Positions 4,101 through 63,173 of a DNA stretch of 64,000 nt are shown here, in pieces. This stretch comes from a virus. Below the pieces are notes generated by a model. The model searched no databases. It was not told the DNA's origin and saw only the letters and a program-made list of their open reading frames with translations. The stretch is taken from the IMG/VR virus record IMGVR_UViG_3300042731_005759, positions 62,001 through 126,000 of that record. One strand, written 5' to 3'. The position numbers and the translations under genes were made by a program. Each line of letters opens with the position of its first letter. The stretch's first letter is position 1.

Positions 4101-7100
4101 TTTATCAAAAAACGAAAACATACTCGTAAAGGTCGATCAGAATAACCTAATCTATATCGATCCAAACAGTATACTTGAAGATGGTGTCGTACAACCAAGA
4201 GCCACTAATGCAGAAAACTTGGTTTCATACGTAAATCTTGAGGCGGATCTAATACCAAGAACTATTTTAAATTCTTCGGGAAACAAAAGTAGTCTAACAA
4301 GTATTGCGAAGGGTACAATAAACTTGTTACAGAATAAAAAGGGAGAATACCTTGATACAGGTTGGACAGAATTGTTTAATCCTTCAAGGATGGACCCAAA
4401 TACTGAAGACATCAATGTAAAAGAACAAGTAACTGATAGTTCAGGACAATCCTTTGGTATGAGTTCGGTATCAATAGAAGTGAAAGGTACCAACTTTATC
4501 CCACGAGTTTCAATAGAATTTATCGACGTGAGGGGTAAAGGGTTATTCGAACACAATAAAAATTCCCCATACCAAGCATTTTTCCATTTACCATGGCCAA
4601 TATTTTATTTAACAGTAAAGGGATACTATGGAAAGGCGATAAGGTACCGATTACACCTTACAGATTTTAATGCAAGATACGATGACCAAAATGGTAACTT
4701 TGTTATCAGTACAACATTCGTCGGTTCAACATACGCATATCTGAATGATATACCTTTAACAGGTATTTTGAACGCACCATACATGTATGGTATAGAAAAG
4801 ACAGAACAAAATGGTTTAAATGAAAAGACAGGGGAGTATCAAATAAAACTCGCTAAAACATCAAAAGGATATCTAACACTTAAATCAATCTACCAAGAAC
4901 TAAGGAGAAAAAACTTAATTGATTTCCCACCTGACGTTAATCCGACTCTACGAGAATTAATTGTTATTGCTAAAAGATTAGATCAACTACTTGAGAATGA
5001 GATTTTCGCTGAGGTTGTAGATATGAGAGTTTTTGCGGCAATTAAAGAATTCGAGGACAATATAAATAACCTTTATAATTCTGTTAAATCGTGGAAAGGA
5101 AGGTACTTAGCGGGGGATTATTTTGAAATTACAGGAAACACTAACAATGTAGAGGAAACAACAAGATATTATTATCTCATAAAAACAGAAGATAACAAGT
5201 TAGAAAACACGAAAGGAACGAAGAGTGGGACCTTAGAACAAATTATTAAGGTTGGTATTGAAAAAATAAATAAGGGACAAAGTTTTACAAGAGAAATGTT
5301 AAGGAAGGACGTAACCTTTAAAAGGAGTACTCTTACAATTAACACAAACAACCCTATACAAGACCTTGATAGTTATATTGATCAATTCGGTGGTAAGTAC
5401 GGTATATCGATTAATAAACTATTGACCGACATACTAAACATTAATAAATCATTCTTAGAAGAAAAGAAAAAGTTTCAAGATAAGGTTGAAGAAGAAATGA
5501 ATAAGATTATTTCTGATCCTTCAAGAGGTATTGGATTTAAACCTACTATACGAAACATTTTTGCGGTAATACTTGCAAATGCGGATGTCTATATTAGGTT
5601 GATGAGAGATGTACACTACCAAGCATACAATCAAAGAGAAGAAAGGAAGAAACGTTTAAGAGGTTTTAATTCAAGTGAAACACCACAAGAGGACGCAATA
5701 TATCCGTGGCCAGAAGTTAAAAAGGAAACCGATGGAAACTCTAAAGTTTTAGCGTACCCTGGTGAAGAAGAACTTATAGGTAAACTTGGAAGTGATGATT
5801 ATTCTTTATGGCCCGAAGTAGGTTTTGTTGAGGAATATATTAGAACCTCCATGAAGATAAATGACACGTTGGCAGAAAAAGAAAAAACCTTTGATAATGT
5901 AACGTTTACCTTCGCAGACACAAATGCGGATGAAAAGATCACAAATAAGATATCGACCGCAGGTACAATATTCAAAACACCTCCGTATATTGATAAGAAC
6001 CTCCCATCAATACTTTATGAAGTTTATGAAAGAAGTCAATTTTTCACATTATATGATACATTTAGTACTGATGTACTGACGGAACTTGCGATACTTGAAT
6101 TCAATAATTTACAGAATTCAATAGAAGAAGATTTCTTTATTGTTGACATACTCAAAGACAGAGTAAATAGTAACTCTAAATTATTAGAGTACTTAGAATC
6201 TTTTTCACCTTTCGAGAGATACCCTTATTACAAAGACAGATTACCTACCACACCATATATTAAAGATATTGATGCGGTACCTTTTAAAATTGAAAGTAAC
6301 GTAGGAGATACAGAAAGAGTACAAACTAGTGGTCTTTATCCAAAATTAGTGGGTGAACTTAAAACATATAGAAGTGAAGATTATAGAACTAAGATATACC
6401 CATTTAATTCAGATACCTACTTAGGATATATAAACAAGACCGAGTTAACCAAAAATGATTTATCGTTAGATGATTATTTAAGTATAGATACGACAAACGG
6501 TTTTATTGTAACACCTATGGATTCTACAAATTGGGTGAACAGTGGATATACGACTAACCTATTTTCAAGGAAATTTGATATAGATGGTACGAATAAAATC
6601 AATATACTAAACACACCTTATTTCCATAAATTATTAAATGAGGAATTTCAAAATGATAGAAGTAAAGGTAAGTACAAAGGGTCGGCATATCTTTTATTAA
6701 ATTCATTACCATTCCATGACTTACACGACACTTTAAATGAAGGTGGTGTTAGAATGTCAAATCTATTTAGAGAAGTTAGTGCGACACATTATGTACCATA
6801 CCATTTAATACTGAAGTGGGGATCCATGTACCATAGGTATAAAACTTTCATTTCAGACGGTACCGATATTATAAATGGAATGGAAACCTCAATAAACGGT
6901 TCGACATATTTTGATAATGGACAAGGACAAACTTTTTCAGGTATAACACATAGTTCACAAACACATGTTGGGGTTCATCCATTATACGAACAATACTTCC
7001 ATCAGATAGTAAATGACTATACCCATTTTGATGGAACACCAACGAGTTATGAATCCGCAATTACAAACTTAGTTTTATATAGGGATGACATAACATCAGG

Positions 7101-9948: not shown

Positions 9949-10614
9949 ATGAGTTTAGAAAATAAGTTACACGAGGAGTTAGAAAGATATAGAAGTATCA
10001 ATAACTACCAAAAAAGTTTGATCTCTGAACAAGAGGAGGTCTCACCTGAAGATTTACCTACTGGTGACGCACCTGAAGGGGACGCACCCGTTGACGACAT
10101 TCCTGCTGGAGACGCACCTGTTGATGATATTCCTGCGGGAGACGCACCAATTGATGATGCACCTATAGATGACGCACCTGATGCGGATGTTGAGGAAATC
10201 GATATTACTGATTTAGTCAATATGACTCAGAACATCAAAAATGATTTAGATGCTAGTAAATCAAATAATGATGAGGTAATTGGTAAAATGGGTGATTTGT
10301 TTTCAAAATTAGACGACTTAGAAAGTAAACTTTCACAAATGGATAATGTGATCGCAAAGATTGACGGACTCGAGAATAAAGTGGAGACAATGAAAGAACC
10401 AACTCCACAAGAGAGATTAGAGATGAGATCTTTAGATTCATATCCATTTAATCAAAAACCTTCAGAGTTCTTCTCTCAAAAAGAACTTGACATGAAAGCG
10501 AGTGGTAAAAATGAATACGTTATCACAAAACAAGATGTCGAAGATTATAACGACAAAGAGATGAGAGACTCGTTCGTAATGGATAACGACGGAGACAATG
10601 AGGTTGAATGGTAG
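9949..10614 (+). CDS. Acidic-repeat, coiled-coil hypothetical protein
   Basis: 221 residues. Residues 1-30 form a helix. Residues 39-77 are a low-complexity acidic run built from GDAPVDDIPA-type units. Residues about 80-150 have heptad-like hydrophobic spacing (MGDLFSKLDDLESKLSQMD, then IAKIDGLENKVETM), so a coiled coil is likely. The C-terminus is again acidic and ends DNDGDNEVEW. The layout (helix, acidic tether, coiled coil, acidic tail) suits a scaffold, adaptor or assembly protein, but no homologue is recognised. It overlaps the next gene by 17 bases in another frame. The protein is strongly anionic, unlike its structural neighbours. Confidence 0.55.
   Translation: MSLENKLHEELERYRSINNYQKSLISEQEEVSPEDLPTGDAPEGDAPVDDIPAGDAPVDDIPAGDAPIDDAPIDDAPDADVEEIDITDLVNMTQNIKNDLDASKSNNDEVIGKMGDLFSKLDDLESKLSQMDNVIAKIDGLENKVETMKEPTPQERLEMRSLDSYPFNQKPSEFFSQKELDMKASGKNEYVITKQDVEDYNDKEMRDSFVMDNDGDNEVEW
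10063..10179 (+). repeat. Acidic GDAP/DDIP tandem repeat
   Basis: In-frame low-complexity repeat encoding alternating G-D-A-P, V-D-D-I-P-A and I-D-D-A-P units, about 39 residues in all. The copies differ at synonymous positions. Confidence 0.8.
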
Positions 10615-10963
10615 TATTAAGTTCTTTCTTGAACTACAATCACAACTAAAAGTTCTACACTGGCAGACTAAAAGTCATGCAAAACACTTAGCGTTCGGAG
10701 AAACATATGATAAACTCGATGAAATTATCGACTTGTATGTTGAAGTCGCAATCGGAAAATACGGTAGATTCACATTAACAGATGATGACCGAGTTTTAAA
10801 CATTAACAATTTATCTGACATTGATCTAATCTCTATGATTAGTGTTGCGTCTGAGGTTATATCAACTATGGAAATAGACGAAAAAGATACTGACCTTTTA
10901 AACCTCAGAGATGAAATCCTAACTCAAGTCAGTAAACTATCTTACCTACTAACTTTAAGGTAA
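10598..10963 (+). CDS. Dps/ferritin-like small helical protein
   Basis: 121 residues, all-helical in appearance. Near the N-terminus, LKVLHWQTKSHAKHLAFGE followed by YDKLDEIIDLYVE closely follows the first two helices of Dps/ferritin-like proteins, where H-W, a second His and an acidic D/E-x3-E helix form the metal site. Full Dps proteins are about 160 residues, so this is short; the second half (ISMISVASEVISTM, then LLNLRDEILTQVSKL) could supply the other two helices. Similar short ferritin-like proteins of unknown role occur in T4-type phages. Whether it binds iron or DNA cannot be told from sequence. The start overlaps the upstream gene by 17 bases. A terminator-like hairpin follows. Confidence 0.55.
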   Translation: MRLNGSIKFFLELQSQLKVLHWQTKSHAKHLAFGETYDKLDEIIDLYVEVAIGKYGRFTLTDDDRVLNINNLSDIDLISMISVASEVISTMEIDEKDTDLLNLRDEILTQVSKLSYLLTLR

Positions 10964-10991: not shown

Positions 10992-11022
10992 GTCTGAGGG
11001 GGTTGACTTTCGGACTTTTTTT
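10992..11022 (+). terminator. Rho-independent terminator before the SSB gene
   Basis: GTCTGA (10992-10997) pairs with TCGGAC (11010-11015), with one G-U pair, followed directly by seven Ts. It closes the small-gene block and separates it from the replication block. Confidence 0.6.
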
Positions 11023-11043
11023 GTGTACCATTTTACTACACAA
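11021..11043 (+). promoter_or_regulatory. Leader hairpin upstream of SSB gene
   Basis: A perfect 7-bp inverted repeat TTGTGTA/TACACAA with a 9-base loop lies 19 bases before the SSB ATG. It could be an operator, or an mRNA hairpin used for translational autocontrol as known for T4 gene 32. The second is an analogy only. Confidence 0.4.
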
Positions 11044-11062
11044 TAAAATAAATTTTAAAATT

Positions 11063-11926
11063 ATGACAAATTCAATTGACGCGATTCTTTCTCAGTATGA
11101 GAAAAACACGCAAAGAGCCACAAGTGGCAACCAACTGTCGAATGAAGATCGACTCAAAAAATACTTCACAACTATTTTACCTAAAGGAACTCCGAGTGGA
11201 CAAAAGAGAATTAGAATTCTCCCAACAACAGACGGAACAAGTCCTTTTAAAGAAGTTTCATTCCACGAAATCCAAGTAGATGGTAAATGGATGAAATTAT
11301 ATGACCCTTCACAAGATGGTGACCCTTCACCACTCAATGAAGTACAGAAAGCACTTCTTGCAACAGGTTCTGAAGCAGACAAGGTTAATGCAAGAAACTA
11401 CAGAGCAAGAAAATTCTATATTGTAAAAGTTATCGATAGAGATAACGAACAAGATGGTCCAAAATTTTGGAGATTTAAACACAATTACAAAGGAGAGGGA
11501 CCGCTAGATAAAATTATTCCTATCATTAGAAGTAAAGGTAATATTACAGATGTTACTGAAGGTAGAGATTTAATCCTTTCATTGACACTTACTAAAGCAC
11601 CAAATGGTAGAGAGTATACTACAATCAATTCTATTATTCAAGAAGATAAATCACCTCTTCACAACGATTCAGAAGTTTCAAATGAGTGGACGAATCACGC
11701 AGACACATGGAGAGATGTTTATTCAGTTAAACCTCTTGAATATTTAGAGATGGTAGCGTTGGGTGAAGTTCCAAGATGGGACTCTGAACAAAAGAAATAT
11801 GTTTCACAATCTGAATCTGAAAGTGATTTCGGAGGTGCCAATGTTACCGCACCTGTTGAACAGTCAACAACAACGACTGAAGATCCACAACAGAATCAAG
11901 AAACATCTGACGAACTACCGTTTTAA
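11063..11926 (+). CDS. gp32: Single-stranded DNA-binding protein, gp32-like
   Basis: 287 residues from ATG 11063, chosen over the in-frame ATG at 11003, which lies inside the terminator and leader region. The central part carries the gp32 core pattern: NYRARKFYIVKVIDR, then GPKFWRFKHNYKG and LDKIIPII. This corresponds to the OB-fold strands of T4 gp32 around its VIKD...FRFGKKI region. The C-terminus is a disordered acidic tail ending DELPF, like the protein-interaction tip of SSBs. T4 gp32 has a zinc-binding insert; this protein has no Cys at all, so the zinc site is absent. It would coat ssDNA at the fork and recruit the UvsX, helicase and nuclease encoded next. The leader hairpin at 11021 and the structured RNA after the stop are candidate control elements. 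Confidence 0.85.
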   Translation: MTNSIDAILSQYEKNTQRATSGNQLSNEDRLKKYFTTILPKGTPSGQKRIRILPTTDGTSPFKEVSFHEIQVDGKWMKLYDPSQDGDPSPLNEVQKALLATGSEADKVNARNYRARKFYIVKVIDRDNEQDGPKFWRFKHNYKGEGPLDKIIPIIRSKGNITDVTEGRDLILSLTLTKAPNGREYTTINSIIQEDKSPLHNDSEVSNEWTNHADTWRDVYSVKPLEYLEMVALGEVPRWDSEQKKYVSQSESESDFGGANVTAPVEQSTTTTEDPQQNQETSDELPF

Positions 11927-11936
11927 AGTAGACCTT

Positions 11937-12026
11937 GGGTCCCCCTACCTCGCGGTATTGGTGGAGCTGTAACCGACATACTTTGACCCTATTGTCGGCC
12001 CTATGAGGAACGGGGGACCCTTTTTT
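11937..12026 (+). ncRNA. Structured RNA element between SSB and uvsX
   Basis: GGGTCCCCC (11937-11945) pairs perfectly with GGGGGACCC (12012-12020), followed by six Ts. Inside, CCTC (11948-11951) can pair with GAGG (12005-12008), and CCGACA (11973-11978) with TGTCGG (11993-11998). CTACC/GGTGG is a further weak arm. GGGTC at 11937 could instead pair with GACCC at 11985-11989. The element is much more GC-rich than its surroundings and ends 11-18 bases before the uvsX ATG. It may be an elaborate terminator, an attenuator or a small RNA. No known RNA family is recognised. Confidence 0.6.
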
Positions 12027-12037
12027 AAAAATATAAT

Positions 12038-13033
12038 ATGGCAATAAAGAAAAAAGATTTTAAAAGTATTAAGTCGAAGTTTTCGAAACAGGCAAAGTTT
12101 AAGTCTGATAAGTTCCTCGACTTAGGAGATTCTTTCTTAGACGCTACAGGTCTACCAGGTCCCGCAATGGGACATATCAATATGTTCTTAGGACATTCTG
12201 ATACGGGTAAGACAACTGCACTTGTAAAAACTGCGGTAGATGCACAAAAGAAAGGAATATTACCTGTCTTTATTATCACAGAACAAAAATGGGATTTCCC
12301 TCATGCAAAATTGATGGGGTTAGAAATCGAGGAAGTGGTAGATGAAGAAACAGGTGAGATTGAATACGACGGATTTTTCTTATTCAACAACCAATTTCAA
12401 TATATAGAACAAATTACAGATTATATCAATGAACTATTGGATGCACAACAAAAAGGTGAGATCGAATATGATTTACTTTTCTTGTGGGATTCAGTAGGTT
12501 CAGTACCGTGTAAAATGACCTTCGATGGTAAAGGTGGTAAACAACACAACGCATCTGTATTATCTGATAAGATTGGTATGGGTTTGAATCAGAGAATTTC
12601 AGGTTCAAGAAGAGTAGATTCTACATATACTAACACTTTAGTTATTGTGAATCAACCATGGGTAGAATTACCAGACAATCCATTTAGTCAACCAAAAATT
12701 AAGGCGAAAGGTGGTGAGTCGATATGGTTAAATTCGACCTTGGTATTCAGATTTGGAAATCAGAAAAATGCGGGAACCAATCCTATCTCAGCGGTTAAAG
12801 ACAAGAGAAAGGTGAAGTTCGCGACAAGAACAAAGATTTCTATTATGAAAAACCACGTAAATGGTTTGGGTTATGAAGATGGAAAGATCATCGTAACCGC
12901 ACACGGTTTTTTGAGTGGTAAAGATGCTGTGGAGGAGAAAAAGTCTTTAGAGGCGTACAAATCCGAACACGCAGAGTATTGGAAGAGACAGTTAGGTATA
13001 GACGGAGACTTTGATATCAGAGAGGAAGAGTAA
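12038..13033 (+). CDS. uvsX: UvsX/RecA-type recombinase
   Basis: 331 residues, slightly shorter than T4 UvsX (about 390). The Walker A motif GHSDTGKT is at residues 52-59 and the Walker B strand LLFLWDS ends near D151. Residues about 222-245 (IKAKGGESIWLNSTLVFRF) match the L2/ATP-proximal region of the family, where a G-G-x-S-x-x-x-x-S/A pattern is typical. The acidic C-terminus ends DIREEE. It should polymerise on ssDNA, hydrolyse ATP and catalyse strand exchange for recombination-dependent replication, displacing the SSB encoded just upstream. No UvsY mediator is recognised in the window. The structured RNA directly upstream may control its expression separately from the SSB gene. Confidence 0.9.
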   Translation: MAIKKKDFKSIKSKFSKQAKFKSDKFLDLGDSFLDATGLPGPAMGHINMFLGHSDTGKTTALVKTAVDAQKKGILPVFIITEQKWDFPHAKLMGLEIEEVVDEETGEIEYDGFFLFNNQFQYIEQITDYINELLDAQQKGEIEYDLLFLWDSVGSVPCKMTFDGKGGKQHNASVLSDKIGMGLNQRISGSRRVDSTYTNTLVIVNQPWVELPDNPFSQPKIKAKGGESIWLNSTLVFRFGNQKNAGTNPISAVKDKRKVKFATRTKISIMKNHVNGLGYEDGKIIVTAHGFLSGKDAVEEKKSLEAYKSEHAEYWKRQLGIDGDFDIREEE

Positions 13034-34100: not shown

Positions 34101-37100
34101 ACCTATTCTTTCATATAAAATATTCACAGATACTGATGGTATAAAGAAAATAAGTGTCACACCTATTAAATACGACGTACCATTATATACTGACAATACT
34201 TGTAGAACTGAGGCGGATATTGATTGTTTAGATGGAGATACTTTTGATTTCTATTTTGATACATTTTACTTAACAGGAACAACCTGTTGTAATCCACAGG
34301 TAGATGTGTATGGACCGAATAAATTTTATACCCTACCTGAGGATGAAGATGAATGTATCCTCATGGAGGATGTATACTTCAAGGTTTCAGGAATTACTTT
34401 CGGAAACGAAGATATTGTTGATGATGGAGATCCATGTACAACTTGTCCACCATATAATACAACATGGCCAACAAACATTTTTATCAATTGTGTTGGTGGA
34501 TATAACGAATCAATTTCAGGTAATACAACATTACAAGAAGACCAAACAGTTGAATGGGTATCGGGTTGTACTTTCGTTATAAGAAATGTAAGAGAAAATG
34601 ACGTAATAGACATAACTATCACTGACGCGGCTAACTGCGATCAAAAAGTTAGAATTGATGGATTACAACAAAAATTTGAGTGGGATCCTATTGATGGTGA
34701 CGATGTTACCGAATCACGTAGTCATTTTTTCCAATACACAATCGATTCTTATTTAGAAGGTGAGGATTACCCAACTCACGATCCATCAGTAAGTCAAAGT
34801 GGTATAACATTCTGTGATAATTTTTCAGGATATACCCTACACCCAACGGTACAATATAGACCTACTTTTGATTATGGTCTAAAACAAAATACTAAGGTCA
34901 TTAAAATTAACAATGGTGTTATTATAGATGACGAAAATACTTGGGTAGATGTACAGAATTATTTCCAAGATAATACATTAGAGTTAATCGATGTTGAAGA
35001 TGTTCAAATAGGTGATAGATTACTTTCAGGACAATATCTTAACTGTCCTTTCAGTTCAAGTGATTATACAAACGCAGTACTGAGTGGTTATTCATTTAGT
35101 TACAATTACTTAACCGTTGAAGTGGACAATAAAGATTGTTTAGGATCAACAAAAGTAAATGTGATTAATGAAAGATTTAGAGTTTTACCAAATTCTAAAT
35201 TAAGGGTAATGACACAGGTGGGAGATCATTGGGAGTTTACAGAAAAATATCCTGAAGAATTAATAGTGAGACCACCTGAACCAACAGAACCTTGTTGTAA
35301 TTACGGTGTAGACTATTATAAAAAAGGTGATTTACTAATAAACGAATTAGGTTTTCCAATCGAGGTAACCTCATTAGATTTAGATTATTGTCAAAGAGAT
35401 TTATTTTATCATCTGAATGTTAGTGCTGTTTACAGACAACCATCAAATACATTAAGTATTGTTCCTGATAATCCTTTTGGTGTTTCCACAGAATGTTGTA
35501 CGGAAGTTATATTATTTAATGGTGATGTTGACGATCAAATATTGGTAGAATATGATGAACAAATATTTGAAAATTTAGATCTCAGTTCACAACAATATTA
35601 TCAAGACCAATTAGATTGTGTTGATGAGCCAACAATCGAAGATTTAGAAAGACCCGAATATACGGAAAACTGTAATGATCTAAATGCGTTTATTGGTATA
35701 CATTATACTGATGGTAACCAAATATTAATTGAGTATGATGAATCGTACAATATTGGTAATATAGTTCAAGTATCAGAGATTAACTCACAACTAACAGAAT
35801 ACCTCTCACCAGGTATGGATTGTTATGAACTAACAGGAATAGCATACTCTGAAAATATTACACATCAAATACTTTCTATATGTACTGATTTGATAACACC
35901 AACAGCGTCTCCCGCACCAACAGGAACACCAACTCCAACACCAACAATTACTGCTAGCCCAACACCTTCACCATCACCTTCAGAAACACCTGAACCTACC
36001 CCTTCACCAAGTCCTAGTGAGACTCCATCACCAACATCAACGCAAACTCCTACACCATCACCTTCACCAAGTGAGACCCCTGAACCTACTCCTTCACCAA
36101 GTCCAAGTGAAACTGCAGAACCTACACCAACACCTTCAGAAACACCTGAACCGACTGCAAGTGAGACGCCACAACCAACAAGTAGTAGTACGCCAGAACC
36201 AACACCAAGTACTACACCTGATCCAACACCATCACCTTCACCTAGTCCATCACCATCACCGAGTCCTTCTCCAAGCCCAAGTCCATCACCAAGTGCAACG
36301 GCAAACTGTGACTTCGATGTTGATATAGACATTGCGACTCCAACCCCCACAAATAGTAGTACACCAGAACCAACACCTAGTCCATCCCCTTCACCTAGCC
36401 CATCTCCATCACCAAGTCCTACAGTTACTGCAAACTGTGACTTTGACGTTGATGTAGATATTGCTACTCCTACACCAACACCATCTCCATCACCTAGTCC
36501 TTCTCCGTCGCCAAGTCCTTCTCCGAGTCCAAGTGCAACGGCAAACTGTGATTTTGACATTGATATAGATATTGCAACACCAACACCTACACCAACAAAT
36601 AGTAGTACACCTGAACCTACCCCTAATCCTACATCAAGTCCTACACCATCACCTAGCCCTTCACCTTCACCATCACCAACACCTAACTGTGATTTCGATG
36701 TTGATATAGACATTGCAACTCCGACTCCGACTCCTTCACCATCACCGAGTCCTTCTCCGAGTCCGAGTCCAAGTGCAACTGAAAACCCAACACAAACACC
36801 AACACCATCCCCAAGTCCTACGCCAAACTGTGACTTTGACGTTGATGTAGATATTGCAACTCCTACGCCAACACCTAGCCCTTCCCCTTCACCTAGTCCA
36901 TCACCATCACCATCACCAAGTACTACACCTGAATCAACACCAACGCCTTCACCTAGCCCATCCCCTTCACCAAGTCCAAGTCCAAGTGCAACGGCAAACT
37001 GTGACTTTGATATTGATATAGACATTGCAACTCCGACCCCAACACCTACAAATAGTAGTACACCTGAACCTACTCCTAATCCTACACCATCACCAACTGT

Positions 37101-38631
37101 AAGTGTAACTCCTGACGCAACACCTAATCCAACGTCTACACCACCTGCAACGGAAAATCCAACACCTACTCCTAGTAGTACTGCAATTCCGACTCCAACA
37201 CCATCACCTAGTCCGTCACCGTCACCATCTCCGAGTCCTACACCAAACTGTGATTTTGATATTGATATAGATATTGCAACACCTACACCGACACCAAGCC
37301 CATCACCTTCACCTAGTCCATCACCATCCCCTTCACCTAGCCCAAGTGTAACACCTGATCCTACATCAAGTCCAACACCATCACCTAGTCCATCACCATC
37401 ACCAAGTCCTACACCTAATTGCGACTTTGATGTTGATGTAGATATTGCGACTCCTACGCCAACACCAACAAATAGTAGTACACCTGAACCTACCCCTTCA
37501 CCAACACCAAGCAGTACTCCAAACCCTACAGCGAGTCCTACTCCAAGTAGTACTCCTAACCCTACGGCAAGTCCTACCCCAAGTCCTACCCCTAATCCTA
37601 CAGCGAGTCCTACACCATCACCAAGTGTAACTCCTGATCCAACTCCTACGCCTTCACCTAGTCCATCACCAAGTCCTTCACCAAGTCCAACACCTAATTG
37701 TGACTTTGACGTTGATGTAGATATTGCTACCCCTACACCAACACCATCTCCATCACCTAGTCCATCACCATCACCGAGTCCTACCCCAAGTAGTACTCCA
37801 AACCCTACAGCGAGTCCTACTCCAAGTAGTACTCCTAACCCTACTGCAAGTCCAACACCTTCACCTAGCCCATCACCAAGTCCAAGTGCAACACCAAACC
37901 CTACACCATCACCTAGCCCATCTCCATCGCCAAGTCCAACACCAAACTGTGATTTCGATGTTGATATAGATATTGCAACTCCTACTCCTACACCATCACC
38001 ATCTCCGTCGCCTTCACCTAGCCCATCGCCAAGTCCTAGTCCATCACCATCGCCAAGTAGTACACCAAATCCAACTCCTACACCAACACCATCTCCATCG
38101 CCATCACCGTCTCCGTCACCATCACCTAGTCCAAGTCCGACTCCAAGTCCGACCCCTAGTCCTACTGCAGTAGATTGTCCACCTAGTTGTGGTACACAGA
38201 TCTATAAAAACTCATATGTACCAACAGGTAGTACTTCATCTGTTAGTACAATTAAGGATCTCGGTGGATACTGTACTGAAAATAGAGTGGATGGTGATAT
38301 AGTATCTACAAGTGGTGCAGAATGGGTATATAATACAAATAATTGTGTTGTATATGTTAGATCTTATAGTGGAGGATCAAGTAGTACGTGTGTTGGTGAG
38401 TATGTAACACCTACAGGAACTGAGGTTAGTTCATTTGTACACACTGAAGGTACGTTAACACCAACAGGAAGTAATAAATTATACGATACAGGAATCAGAT
38501 ATATTGACTCTAATAATAACGCAATTGTGATTGTGACTGAATGGAATTCATCACTAATGGATTTAGTTAGAGTTTGGGTATTATGTGATTGTAGTTTTGA
38601 AGGTGAAGTAATAGAAAATTTTGAAGGATGA
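31174..38631 (+). CDS. Giant baseplate-fibre protein: P2 gpI-like part plus Pro/Thr/Ser linker with NCDFDVD motifs
   Basis: 2485 residues. Residues about 303-483 ([38 protein letters not shown] and FLGAPEP) resemble P2 gpI-type tail proteins, which join baseplate to fibres. A second helical part near 733-780 ([19 protein letters not shown]) fits the same family. Residues 800-1570 are beta-rich, Cys-containing modules. Residues about 1576-2333 are a Pro/Thr/Ser linker of roughly 760 residues in which a 10-residue motif NCDF-D-(V/I)-D-(V/I)-D-I occurs ten times. A Cys-rich globular domain ends the chain ([13 protein letters not shown]). The likely role is a baseplate arm that carries a long flexible tether with a receptor-binding tip. 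Fusion of baseplate and tether in one chain is unusual. The frame stays open through all repeats. Confidence 0.6.
35897..38171 (+). repeat. [12 protein letters not shown] linker with ten [10 protein letters not shown] motifs
   Basis: About 2.27 kb of C- and A-rich sequence encoding Pro alternating with Ser or Thr. Motif copies start at 36304, 36433, 36544, 36685, 36826, 36997, 37246, 37417, 37696 and 37945, all in frame, with many synonymous differences between copies. An exact 53-bp direct repeat (37513-37565 and 37792-37844) is offset by 279 bases, a multiple of three. Confidence 0.95.
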
Positions 38632-38671
38632 TAGACTATAAAATTGAAAAATTAAACTATATATTTTAATA

Positions 38672-41600
38672 ATGAGTCAGGTAAGATATTTTGATGTAAC
38701 AATTAGTTCGGGAACCTCACATAGTACATATATTATATACTATGATCAGGTTAACGCGTCTAATATTGCCACAAGAGTATCAACTAATTTACCTGCAACA
38801 GGAGTTACATATTCAGATTTAACTTCACTTAATGGTGTTAGAGTTCAAGTACCTTACACTGCAACAACAATATTATTGTATAATAACTCATGTGTTGTTG
38901 ATGACGAAATTATCTTACCAACACCAATTCCCACATCTACACCTACACCCACTCCTTCCCCAAGCCCATCACCTAGTCCATCACCTTCACCTAGTCCATC
39001 ACCAAGCCCTACACCATCCCCAAGCCCAAGCCCATCCCCAAGTCCAACACCTAATTGTGACTTTGATGTAGACATAGATATTGCAACTCCCACACCAACC
39101 CCATCACCTTCACCTAGCCCATCACCTAGTCCGTCCCCATCACCAACACCAAACCCTACACCAAATCCAACACCATCCCCAAGCCCAAGCCCATCACCTT
39201 CACCTAGTCCATCACCAAGTCCTACACCGACATTTAGTCCAACTCCAAGTGCAACACCAAACCCTACTGCGAGTCCAACACCATCTCCTAGCCCGAGTCC
39301 ATCACCAAGTCCAACACCGTCACCAACACCTAATTGTGACTTCGATGTGGACGTAGAAATGAATTTAGCACCTACAGGGTTTACACCATTTGCTTTTCAA
39401 CAGTTTGAAAATACGGCAACAGGTACAACGATAGCGACACTTTCAGCAAGTGATCCTGATTCGGGTGATACACATACATTTAGTTTAGTGTCAGGTTCAG
39501 GTAGTACAGATAACGCATCATTTACTTTATCAAGTGCAGGTGTTCTTAAAAATGCAGTAGTATTCAACTATGAAACAAAATCAAGTTATTCGATAAGAGT
39601 AAGAGTTACAGATCAAGGTGGACTAAGTTTTGAAGGTACAAGAACAGTATCAGTTCGTAACGTAAATGAAACTCCGTATGGATTGACATTAAGCAATAAT
39701 ACACAGAATGAGAATACCGCAACAGGTACAACCATCGGAACGTTCTCAGGTTTAGATGTTGATAGTGGTGAAACATTTACATATACACTTTCGGGAAGTG
39801 GTAATGATAACGCATCATTTACTTTATCAAGTGCGGGAGTTCTTAAAAACGCGATAGTATTCAATTACGAAGTTAAAAATTCATATAGTATCGAAGTAAC
39901 GGTTACTGATAGTGGTAATAACACCTATACTGATACATTTACAATTTCAGTCCTTGATGTTAACGAAACACCTACTAATATTACTTTATCAAGTTCATCT
40001 ATAGATGAGAATGTACCAACAGGGACTACAATTGGAACATTTAGCTCATCAGACCCTGATAGTGGAAATACCTTTACATATAGTTTAGTAAGTGGAACAG
40101 GATCATCAGGAAATGGTAGTTTTTATATCGATGGTACAAGTCTGAAGAGTAATGTTGTATTTGACTATGAAACACAATCATCTTACTCTATAAGGGTTAG
40201 ATCGACAGATCAAGGAGGTCTTTACGTAGAAAAAATATTAACAATATCGATTACAGACATATCAGTATCAGGTACTGCAACAGTCACAAACTTAAATTGT
40301 TATAATGATTCCTCAGGAACAATTGAAGTCACTTCTCAGTCAGGGGGTGACTCACCATACACATATTCAATTAATGGTATATCGTATCAATCATCAACGT
40401 CATTTACAGGTTTGGGGGCAGGAACTTATACAGTATATATTAAAGATGATAATGGTGAAATAGGTACGTTATCAAAAACAATAACACAACCACCCGTACT
40501 TTCAGTGACTGATTCACACACAGATCCAACATGTTATGGAGGAAGTGATGGTGAAATTGTCTTTAGTGTTGCTGGTGGTACAGGTGAAAAAACATATACA
40601 ATAAATGGGGATGTAACAACAGATACAACTCATACAGGTTTGACTGCGGGTACATATACTTTCATTGCGACAGACGAAAATGGATGTACTGATAGTAGAT
40701 CGGTTACTTTGAGTGTAACGCAAGTGTCAGTTAATTTTGACGGAAGTGATGTTAGTTGTAATGGTGATTCAGATGGTAGTATTAGGGTTTTCTGTCCAAC
40801 AGGTGGTAGTGGATCGGGATACGAAGTCAAAATAGGGTCCAATGCATATCAAAACTTACCAACTGGTTGTGGTTTTGGTGATGGAGTAAATTACACGGCA
40901 TTAACTGCAGGTACATACACTATCACAGTAAAAGATGGGGATGGTTGTGAAAGACAATATACAAGAGTAATAACAGAACCTACTACTTTATCAGCATCTG
41001 CAAGTGGTACTCTACCAACCTGTAGTAATAGTTCAGATGGTACAATAACAGTAACCGCCAGTGGTGGTACATCACCATATGAGTATGATTTAGCGAATAC
41101 AGGTTACCAAACCTCAAACGTATTCAGTAACCTAAGTTCAGGTTCATATACAGGTAGGGTAAGAGATAATAATGGGTGTATTGGGGCGTTTAGTGTTGAT
41201 ATCACAAGAACTCAAGTGTCTGCAACAGTAACACAAACAAATGTTACTTGTAATGGTGATGATGACGGAACAATAACTGTTACAAGTCCATCAGGTGGTA
41301 CAGGTACAGGATACGAAGTAAAATTAAATAGTAATGGTACTTATGTAAATCTTGAGACAGAAACATATAGTAATTTGGCACCAGGAACATACACAGTTTA
41401 TGTTAAGGATAGTAATGATTGTGAAAGAACATATAGTATAACAATAACTGAAAATGCGGTGGTGACCGCAAGTGTTACATCAACAGACCCAACATGTTTC
41501 GGTAATACTGATGGTAGTATAACAGTAACGGGATCAGGTGGAACAGGATCATATACTTACAGTATTGGAAGTGGTTACCAAGCATCAAATACTTTTACCA

Positions 41601-62136: not shown

Positions 62137-62207
62137 GGACGGGACGTGTAGAAATACACGTAAGGTTGGTAGTCCCTGGGATGTGGTGTTCTCAGGGACT
62201 TTTTTTT
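62137..62207 (+). ncRNA. Two-hairpin structured RNA / leader before primase
   Basis: Hairpin 1 is ACGTGTA/TACACGT (62144-62150 with 62155-62161) with a GAAA tetraloop. Hairpin 2 is AGTCCCTG/CAGGGACT (62171-62178 with 62193-62200), extendable by three pairs and followed by a T-run. GGGAC at 62141-62145 could instead pair with GTCCC at 62172-62176, which would break hairpin 2. The element is thus either a small terminated RNA or an attenuator in the primase leader. Confidence 0.55.
62171..62207 (+). terminator. Strong terminator hairpin upstream of primase
   Basis: 8-bp perfect stem plus a G-U and two further pairs, loop TGTGGTGT, followed by eight Ts. It ends 28 bases before the primase ATG, so primase expression needs readthrough or a promoter in that gap. 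Confidence 0.8.
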
Positions 62208-62234
62208 GTCAAAAATTTTTCGTATACTTTTACT

Positions 62235-63173
62235 ATGACCACCAATGAAACAGACTTTTCTCCAATTATAGACGTTTTAGAAGACGTTTTTGGTGATTAT
62301 AAAAATCACAATGACTATAGAGGTCAAATATCTTTTGACTGCCCTGTATGTTCCTATGAAATAAAGGGGTTAGATGCGGGTGATGGAAAGGGAAATCTCG
62401 AAATAAACTATAAAATGTTTGTTTATAAGTGTTGGTCGTGTGCGGAAACTCACGACACACATGGACACTTATCTAAGTTGGTTAGAAAATATGGATCACC
62501 ACGACAGATTAAACAATTTTTCTTGTTTCTACCTGATGAATTCATACAGGAGAAACAACAATATAAAAAAGTAAAGTTACCTTACAGTTTTACTCCATTT
62601 TCAGAAGTAACTGAAGGACAAAAACTTACACATTATTATAAACAAGCGATTAGATACATAAACTCAAGGAATATAACACCTGAAATGTTAGAAAAATATA
62701 AAATTGGGTACTGTACCGAGGGTTTGTACGAGAATCGAATTGTCGTACCATCTTATGATGGAAACGACAATCTAAATTATTTTGTTGCGAGATCATATTT
62801 GAGTTATTCTAAATTAAAATATAGAAATCCACAAGCGGATAAAGAGAAATTGATTTGGAATGAACATTTAATAGATTGGGAAAAACCAATTTATTTAGTA
62901 GAGGGGGTATTTGATAGTCTATTTGTTGAAAATTCAATACCTCTATTGGGTAAATTCCTAAATAATAACTTGTTTGAAAAGTTATATGATAATGCGAAGA
63001 AAATCATCATCGTGTTAGATGGTGATGCGTGGGATGATGCCGAAAGATTATACCATAGAATAAACGGAGGTAAGTTAATGGGTAAAATATGGATCATTAA
63101 ACTACCAATCGATAATGATATTGCGGATTTGAGAGGAGATCTCTCCAAATATCAAGAAATACAATTAGATTAA
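62235..63173 (+). CDS. gp61: DNA primase with zinc ribbon and TOPRIM domain
   Basis: 312 residues from ATG 62235; the in-frame ATG at 62166 lies upstream of the terminator hairpin and is rejected. The N-terminal zinc site has C36-x2-C39 (CPVC) and C66-x2-C69 (CWSC), with nearby His residues (THDTHGH). The TOPRIM domain has E223 in IYLVEGVFDS and D262-G-D264 in IVLDGDAWDD. These are the DnaG/gp61-type metal-binding residues. It should lay RNA primers on the lagging strand with the helicase encoded at 14539. The stop overlaps the next start (TAATG), so primase and the downstream nuclease are coupled. Confidence 0.9.
   Translation: MTTNETDFSPIIDVLEDVFGDYKNHNDYRGQISFDCPVCSYEIKGLDAGDGKGNLEINYKMFVYKCWSCAETHDTHGHLSKLVRKYGSPRQIKQFFLFLPDEFIQEKQQYKKVKLPYSFTPFSEVTEGQKLTHYYKQAIRYINSRNITPEMLEKYKIGYCTEGLYENRIVVPSYDGNDNLNYFVARSYLSYSKLKYRNPQADKEKLIWNEHLIDWEKPIYLVEGVFDSLFVENSIPLLGKFLNNNLFEKLYDNAKKIIIVLDGDAWDDAERLYHRINGGKLMGKIWIIKLPIDNDIADLRGDLSKYQEIQLD

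What the first reader, a model, noticed from the sequence alone, without database searches (positions are those of the whole stretch)
11937..12026. GC-rich structured RNA between SSB and uvsX genes
Seen: a 9-bp GC-rich closing stem, inner helices and a T-run in an otherwise AT-rich genome, with an alternative pairing GGGTC/GACCC. It is larger than a simple terminator. Inference: an attenuator, protein-binding autoregulatory site (SSB or UvsX) or stable small RNA that sets the SSB to UvsX ratio.
Basis: partly seen in the sequence, partly recalled or inferred. Interest (0 to 1): 0.65.

Follow-up and report, generated by a model that had tools for sequence, protein, structure and literature searches.

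The report
Structured leaky terminator between phage genes
Between two DNA-replication genes of an uncultured phage, the RNA folds into a conserved, elaborate hairpin that most likely lets only part of the transcripts continue into the second gene; the RNA is not in Rfam, and what its conserved inner part senses or binds is unknown.

Summary
In detail: 11937-12026 holds a 9-bp perfect GC stem (11937-11945/12012-12020), inner helices and a T6 run. It is the only such hairpin in the window (0 in 100 shuffles). It is also a real, conserved RNA. Twenty-five distinct relatives, all at the same SSB-uvsX junction of related uncultured phages, keep the architecture at near-saturated synonymous divergence. 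The outer stem is rebuilt with three very different arm sequences; an inner hairpin covaries under GNRA loops (absent from the window's own subclade); UGGUGGAG and CCGA..UCGGYCC are invariant. It has one origin on the UvsX tree. More distant relatives have an ordinary hairpin, or nothing, at this site. It occurs once per genome and has no Rfam match.

Best reading: an intrinsic, probably leaky, terminator/attenuator separating a promoter-driven ssb from uvsX, built around an RNA core whose partner is unknown. Support for leakiness: no room for a promoter before uvsX (15-21 nt), and shorter U-tracts (median run 4) than upstream of ssb (median 7). A more conserved alternative, 5' arm with GGUGG, exists but has no compensatory proof. 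No transcript data were available, so termination, leakiness and any sensing are inferred.

The parts
11063..11926 (+). ssb gene (gp32-like single-stranded DNA-binding protein, 287 aa, acidic C-terminus ending DELPF)
   Evidence: Pfam gp32 E=1.3e-12, PHROG SSB 2.5e-11; ORF list
10992..11040 (+). composite terminator hairpin (GTCTGAGGGGGTTGACTTTCGGAC + T7) that overlaps a promoter-like site, TTGAC (11003) - N18 - TACCATTT, directly upstream of ssb
   Evidence: the arrangement is conserved upstream of ssb in the close relatives whose upstream region is held
11937..11945 (+). P1 5' arm GGGTCCCCC of the terminator stem
   Evidence: 9-bp perfect pairing; 9-13 bp pairing with three very different arm sequences (plus minor variants) in all relatives
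11945..11949 (+). CUACC (CCACC in most relatives; alternative helix P2, can pair with GGUGG)
   Evidence: pairing possible in all elements; only one-sided changes
11948..11951 (+). P1b 5' side CCTC (pairs with GAGG 12005-12008)
   Evidence: fold; CUC/GAG becomes CCC/GGG in L409
11959..11966 (+). invariant core segment UGGUGGAG
   Evidence: identical in all 25 distinct elements where four-fold-degenerate sites are only about half identical between subclades
11973..11998 (+). P3 hairpin CCGACA...TGTCGG (loop much longer in the window's subclade)
   Evidence: CCGAU/AUCGG in L393
11997..12001 (+). conserved GGYCC segment following P3
   Evidence: all 25 elements
12012..12020 (+). P1 3' arm GGGGGACCC
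12021..12026 (+). T6 run (U-tract); four T invariant in all relatives
12038..13033 (+). uvsX-like recombinase gene, start codon 17 nt after the stem
   Evidence: PHROG UvsX-like recombinase E=5.9e-13

Best explanation
The element is an intrinsic transcription terminator that works as a leaky or regulated attenuator between ssb and uvsX. RNA polymerase starting at the promoter just upstream of ssb makes much ssb mRNA and stops at the P1 stem plus U-tract. A fraction reads through to uvsX and the downstream exonuclease gene; uvsX has no promoter of its own in the 17 nt that remain. Inside P1 sits a conserved RNA core: a GNRA hairpin (lost in the window's subclade), UGGUGGAG, the CCGAC/GUCGG hairpin and YCC. 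I infer that the core tunes read-through, because GGUGGAG can hold the 5' arm of P1 before the 3' arm is made, and a protein or other factor bound to the core would prolong that state. Shown computationally: structure, conservation, single origin, position, missing room for a promoter, weaker U-tracts. Inferred: termination in the cell, leakiness, and modulation by the core.
For: P1 is kept at 9-13 bp in every relative although its arms change from GGGTCCCC/GGGGACCC to GGACCCACCC/GGGTGGGTCC to GAACCTATCCCCC/GGGGGGTAGGTTC. Eight pair positions have two-sided changes and 99% of cells pair; none of 5000 arm-swap shuffles reaches that. The U-tract directly after P1 is invariant for four T. The stem ends 15-21 nt before the uvsX start in all relatives. 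Promoter-like TTGAC-N18-TA..TTT lies just upstream of ssb and is conserved. The median longest T run is 4 here against 7 in the terminator upstream of ssb in the same contigs. More distant relatives keep a hairpin at the same site with quite different sequence. UGGUGGAG and YCC are invariant at near-saturated synonymous divergence. In the nascent RNA lacking the 3' arm, GGUGG pairs with the 5' arm with probability 0.60-0.98; in the full RNA P1 is about 1.0.
Against: No transcript data. P1 is so stable that the default is termination, and the alternative pairing has no compensatory support: GGUGG never varies. Occupancy of the 5' arm in nascent RNA is only modestly above that in interior-shuffled controls (3-39 of 100 shuffles as high). 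One sister hairpin (L015) has almost no U-tract, so the conserved role at this site might be mRNA protection rather than termination. The T-run measure upstream of ssb picked an unrelated T run in a few contigs. A promoter inside ssb was sought only with two simple consensus patterns.
Confidence: 0.5

Rival explanations
1. The element is the 3' end of the ssb message: a terminator plus exonuclease-resistant, protein-binding cap, or a 3'UTR-derived stable RNA, whose core serves mRNA stability or a trans function rather than control of uvsX.
For: It directly follows the ssb stop codon; very stable fold; core conserved independently of the stem; structured 3'UTR elements such as the L17 downstream element are known (PMC2864571).
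Against: Position and spacing to the uvsX start are also conserved, and uvsX would still need read-through; no separate promoter for a small RNA was seen.
Confidence: 0.25
2. It is a translational operator: the gp32-like SSB (or UvsX) binds the structured core and spreads over the A/U-rich leader of uvsX, repressing its translation, as T4 gp32 does on its own mRNA.
For: T4 gp32 uses a folded element followed by a less structured stretch with UUAAA/UAAA repeats (PMC535899); here a folded element is followed by UUUUUUAAAAAUAUAAUAUG.
Against: In T4 the operator precedes gene 32 itself; this ssb leader is unstructured and lacks any folded element. No pseudoknot is demonstrated. Some deep relatives have only 8-12 nt between the genes.
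Confidence: 0.1
3. It is an ordinary terminator whose loop was enlarged by chance, the inner sequence being conserved only by recent common ancestry.
For: Single origin in one clade; simple hairpins do the job in sister phages; shuffle z-score only -2.
Against: Four-fold sites between subclades are only about 40-60% identical, yet about 20 inner positions are invariant, GNRA loops are kept through loop changes, and inner stems covary.
Confidence: 0.12
4. The conserved core acts as DNA (protein-binding, recombination or replication signal) rather than RNA.
For: It lies among replication and recombination genes; single copy per genome.
Against: Two-sided changes in three stems, GNRA loop variation, and fixed orientation between stop codon and T-run fit RNA.
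Confidence: 0.03

Closest known systems
Intrinsic (Rho-independent) terminators and transcription attenuators
   Same: GC-rich stem directly followed by a U-tract between two co-directional genes; possible earlier alternative pairing of the 5' arm
   Different: The 'loop' is a conserved multi-helix RNA of about 60-70 nt with invariant UGGUGGAG and, in most members, a GNRA hairpin; no leader peptide recognised
Bacteriophage T4 gene 32 (gp32) autogenous translational operator
   Same: Structured RNA beside a gp32-like SSB gene, followed by A/U-rich sequence before a start codon
   Different: T4's is a pseudoknot of about 28 nt upstream of gene 32 itself (PMC535899); this lies downstream of ssb and upstream of uvsX, and is closed by a terminator stem
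L17 downstream element (RF01708)
   Same: Structured RNA in the 3'UTR of a gene
   Different: Different gene, different bacteria, no Rfam match here
STAXI motif (DNA-handling genes including Ssb)
   Same: Conserved structure near SSB genes
   Different: STAXI is a tandemly repeated pseudoknot, often with UUCG loops (PMC2864571); this is a single copy with GNRA loops and a U-tract

Membership tests
Intrinsic terminator | GC-rich stem of at least 5 bp immediately followed by a U-tract | tested here: met
   9 bp + T6 in the window; 9-13 bp and at least 4 T in all relatives; the U-tract is short in many
Intrinsic terminator | Transcript 3' ends at the U-tract | not testable with these tools
   No RNA-seq or in vitro transcription available
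Attenuator or riboswitch-type switch | Two mutually exclusive helices, each supported by covariation | tested here: inconclusive
   P1 strongly supported; alternative 5' arm/GGUGG possible in all but never with a two-sided change, and only modestly above shuffles
Attenuator or riboswitch-type switch | A ligand, protein or ribosome stabilises one state | not testable with these tools
   Needs binding and transcription assays
T4 gp32 operator | Folded element in the leader of the SSB gene itself | tested here: not met
   ssb leader 11031-11063 folds at 0 kcal/mol; the element lies downstream of ssb
Any Rfam 15 family | Match above the family gathering score | tested here: not met
   None in the 64-kb window; only chance-level matches in a permissive local search
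Coding sequence | Conserved open frame through the element | tested here: not met
   An ATG frame seen in L004, L010 and L014 shifts or is interrupted in L083, L005 and L002 and is absent in the window (read by eye from the sequences)

The most novel reading that the evidence does not exclude
A phage-encoded sensing RNA: the UGGUGGAG/GNRA core binds a phage or host factor (for example SSB, so that free SSB level sets read-through) and switches the terminator, directly setting the SSB to UvsX ratio. It would be a new class of attenuator specific to this phage clade.
Probability: 0.25. Interest if true: 0.7.

Novelty: new variant of a known kind. Interest (0 to 1): 0.45.

Why it matters
SSB and UvsX act in a stoichiometric balance on single-stranded DNA, and how phages set that ratio at the RNA level is known mainly from T4. 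A conserved RNA placed exactly between the two genes in a clade of uncultured phages (probably of Bacteroidota: the only cultured relatives found infect Flavobacterium) gives a short, testable handle: delete or mutate about 80 nt in a reporter and measure the two products.

Tried and rejected
A first automatic parse wrongly showed 8-9 nt gaps for several close relatives because the stop-codon pattern matched again near the uvsX start; the alignment showed that all close relatives carry the element. This had briefly suggested a mobile insertion, which is rejected. Other copies: the covariance model finds one strong copy per record in 18 records including the 176-kb own genome and a 145-kb relative, and nothing in 67 distant loci. 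Small ORF (METSGG...): rejected because the frame is not conserved. Small ribozyme (HDV-like nested pseudoknot): considered by eye; catalytic motifs not recognised and no Rfam match. Mimicry of 16S rRNA (GGTGGAGC also occurs near position 940, from memory): not pursued, because a 7-8 nt match in 1.5 kb is expected by chance a few percent of the time. RNAalifold on the MAFFT alignment misplaces P1 because arm lengths differ, so P1 was counted on arm-anchored excerpts (the shuffle part crashed and was redone). Paper searches for a described RNA at ssb-uvsX found none.

Full report
What is there. The window is part of a 176-kb virus record. The gene order DUF5856/starvation-type protein - ssb - uvsX - 5'-3' exonuclease matches, for ssb, recombinase and exonuclease, that of the cultured Flavobacterium phage immuto, whose recombinase is 45% identical; there the ssb and recombinase genes are 2 nt apart and no element exists. 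Between the ssb stop (11926) and the uvsX start (12038) lies a 9-bp perfect stem 11937-11945/12012-12020, inner helices and T6. In the 64-kb window such a stem plus T-run occurs once, and never in 100 dinucleotide shuffles. Folding alone is not striking against shuffles of the same GC-rich segment (z -2.0), so the case rests on comparison.

Comparison. UvsX relatives in viral contigs were collected, and three structure-based pattern scans added more. This gives 25 distinct elements (A3), every one between ssb and uvsX. All keep P1 at 9-13 bp, with three very different arm sequences. All but the window's own four-member subclade have a 4-5 bp hairpin with a GNRA loop: GATG-GAAA-CATC, GACG-GAAA-CGTC, GATAG-GTAA-CTATC, GATGT-GTGA-ACATC. 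UGGUGGAG, CCGA..UCGG and YCC are invariant. On arm-anchored excerpts, eight pair positions show two-sided changes and 99% of cells pair; on the nine distinct excerpts none of 5000 arm-swap shuffles reaches this. Most of the P1 changes separate a few lineages, so they are a handful of evolutionary events, not dozens. UvsX four-fold-degenerate sites between subclades are about 40-60% identical, so an invariant core is purifying selection, not recent ancestry.

History. On a UvsX protein tree the complex element has a single origin (support 99/94; one change in 100% of bootstrap trees). Its sister lineage (L015, L016) and most distant relatives have a simple hairpin at the same site; some deep lineages have 4-12 nt and nothing. 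A covariance model finds one strong copy per record in 18 records, including the 176-kb own genome and a 145-kb relative, and no credible copy in 67 distant loci. Rfam has no match. No similar DNA is in the cultured-phage collection.

Transcription context. Just upstream of ssb lies a terminator hairpin overlapping a promoter-like TTGAC-N18-TACCATTT (11003), conserved in close relatives; more distant relatives have a terminator followed by a similar promoter-like sequence. So ssb appears to have its own start. The P1 stem ends 15-21 nt before the uvsX start in all complex elements, leaving no room for a promoter. The U-tract here is shorter (median longest run 4, window 6) than the tract upstream of ssb in the same contigs (median 7, with a few mis-picked runs). 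These facts fit a leaky terminator that keeps ssb above uvsX. I regard this as inference until transcript ends are mapped.

Possible switch. In RNA lacking the 3' arm it forms with probability 0.60-0.98; in complete RNA P1 takes over at about 1.0. However, GGUGG never varies, so there is no compensatory proof, and total occupancy of the 5' arm is only modestly above that of interior-shuffled controls. In subclades where P1b (CUC/GAG; CCC/GGG in L409) forms, the terminator state alone accounts for the conserved CCACCUC; GGUGGAG, the GNRA hairpin and YCC remain unexplained by the terminator and are the likely recognition surface.

Known relatives. T4 gp32 represses its own mRNA through a pseudoknot plus a less structured leader with UUAAA/UAAA repeats, upstream of gene 32 (PMC535899). 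The leader of this ssb is unstructured, so membership fails, though an SSB-operated element controlling uvsX is not excluded. The L17 downstream element and STAXI motif (PMC2864571) are analogies only.

Verdict. Leaky terminator/attenuator is the best mechanism at about 0.5. The partner of the core is unknown.

Noticed in passing
window 10992-11040: Composite element upstream of ssb: the -35-like TTGAC lies in the loop of a terminator hairpin whose T-run is followed by the -10-like TACCATTT. The arrangement (AAGTCCAGGGGGTTGACCTTTGGACTTTTTTTGTGTACCTTTTA type) is conserved across the clade, with GGGG or GGGCC before TTGAC.
   Followed up: partly
window 62171-62235: A second strong terminator (AGTCCCTGGG..CAGGGACTTTTTTTT) directly followed by a -10-like CGTATACTTTTAC just before an ATG: a terminator-then-promoter layout like that upstream of ssb.
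   Followed up: no
window 35800-39300: Low-complexity Pro-Ser-Thr-rich repeats (TPSPSPSP... with recurring [16 protein letters not shown] units) inside two large ORFs, giving a C-rich island (GC 0.48, skew -0.51) in an AT-rich genome.
   Followed up: partly
window 11973-11998, L001, L261, L265: The window's subclade lacks the GNRA hairpin and has a longer P3 loop containing GACCC, complementary to the P1 5' arm: a possible compensating rearrangement.
   Followed up: partly
L015 just upstream of its uvsX start (position 4410): Sister-lineage hairpin CATATGGTACCGACA..TGTCGGTACCATAT has almost no U-tract, suggesting that the conserved hairpin at this site may not always terminate transcription.
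   Followed up: no
window 10598-10963: Gene upstream of ssb matches DUF5856 / PHROG 858 'starvation-inducible transcriptional regulator'.
   Followed up: no
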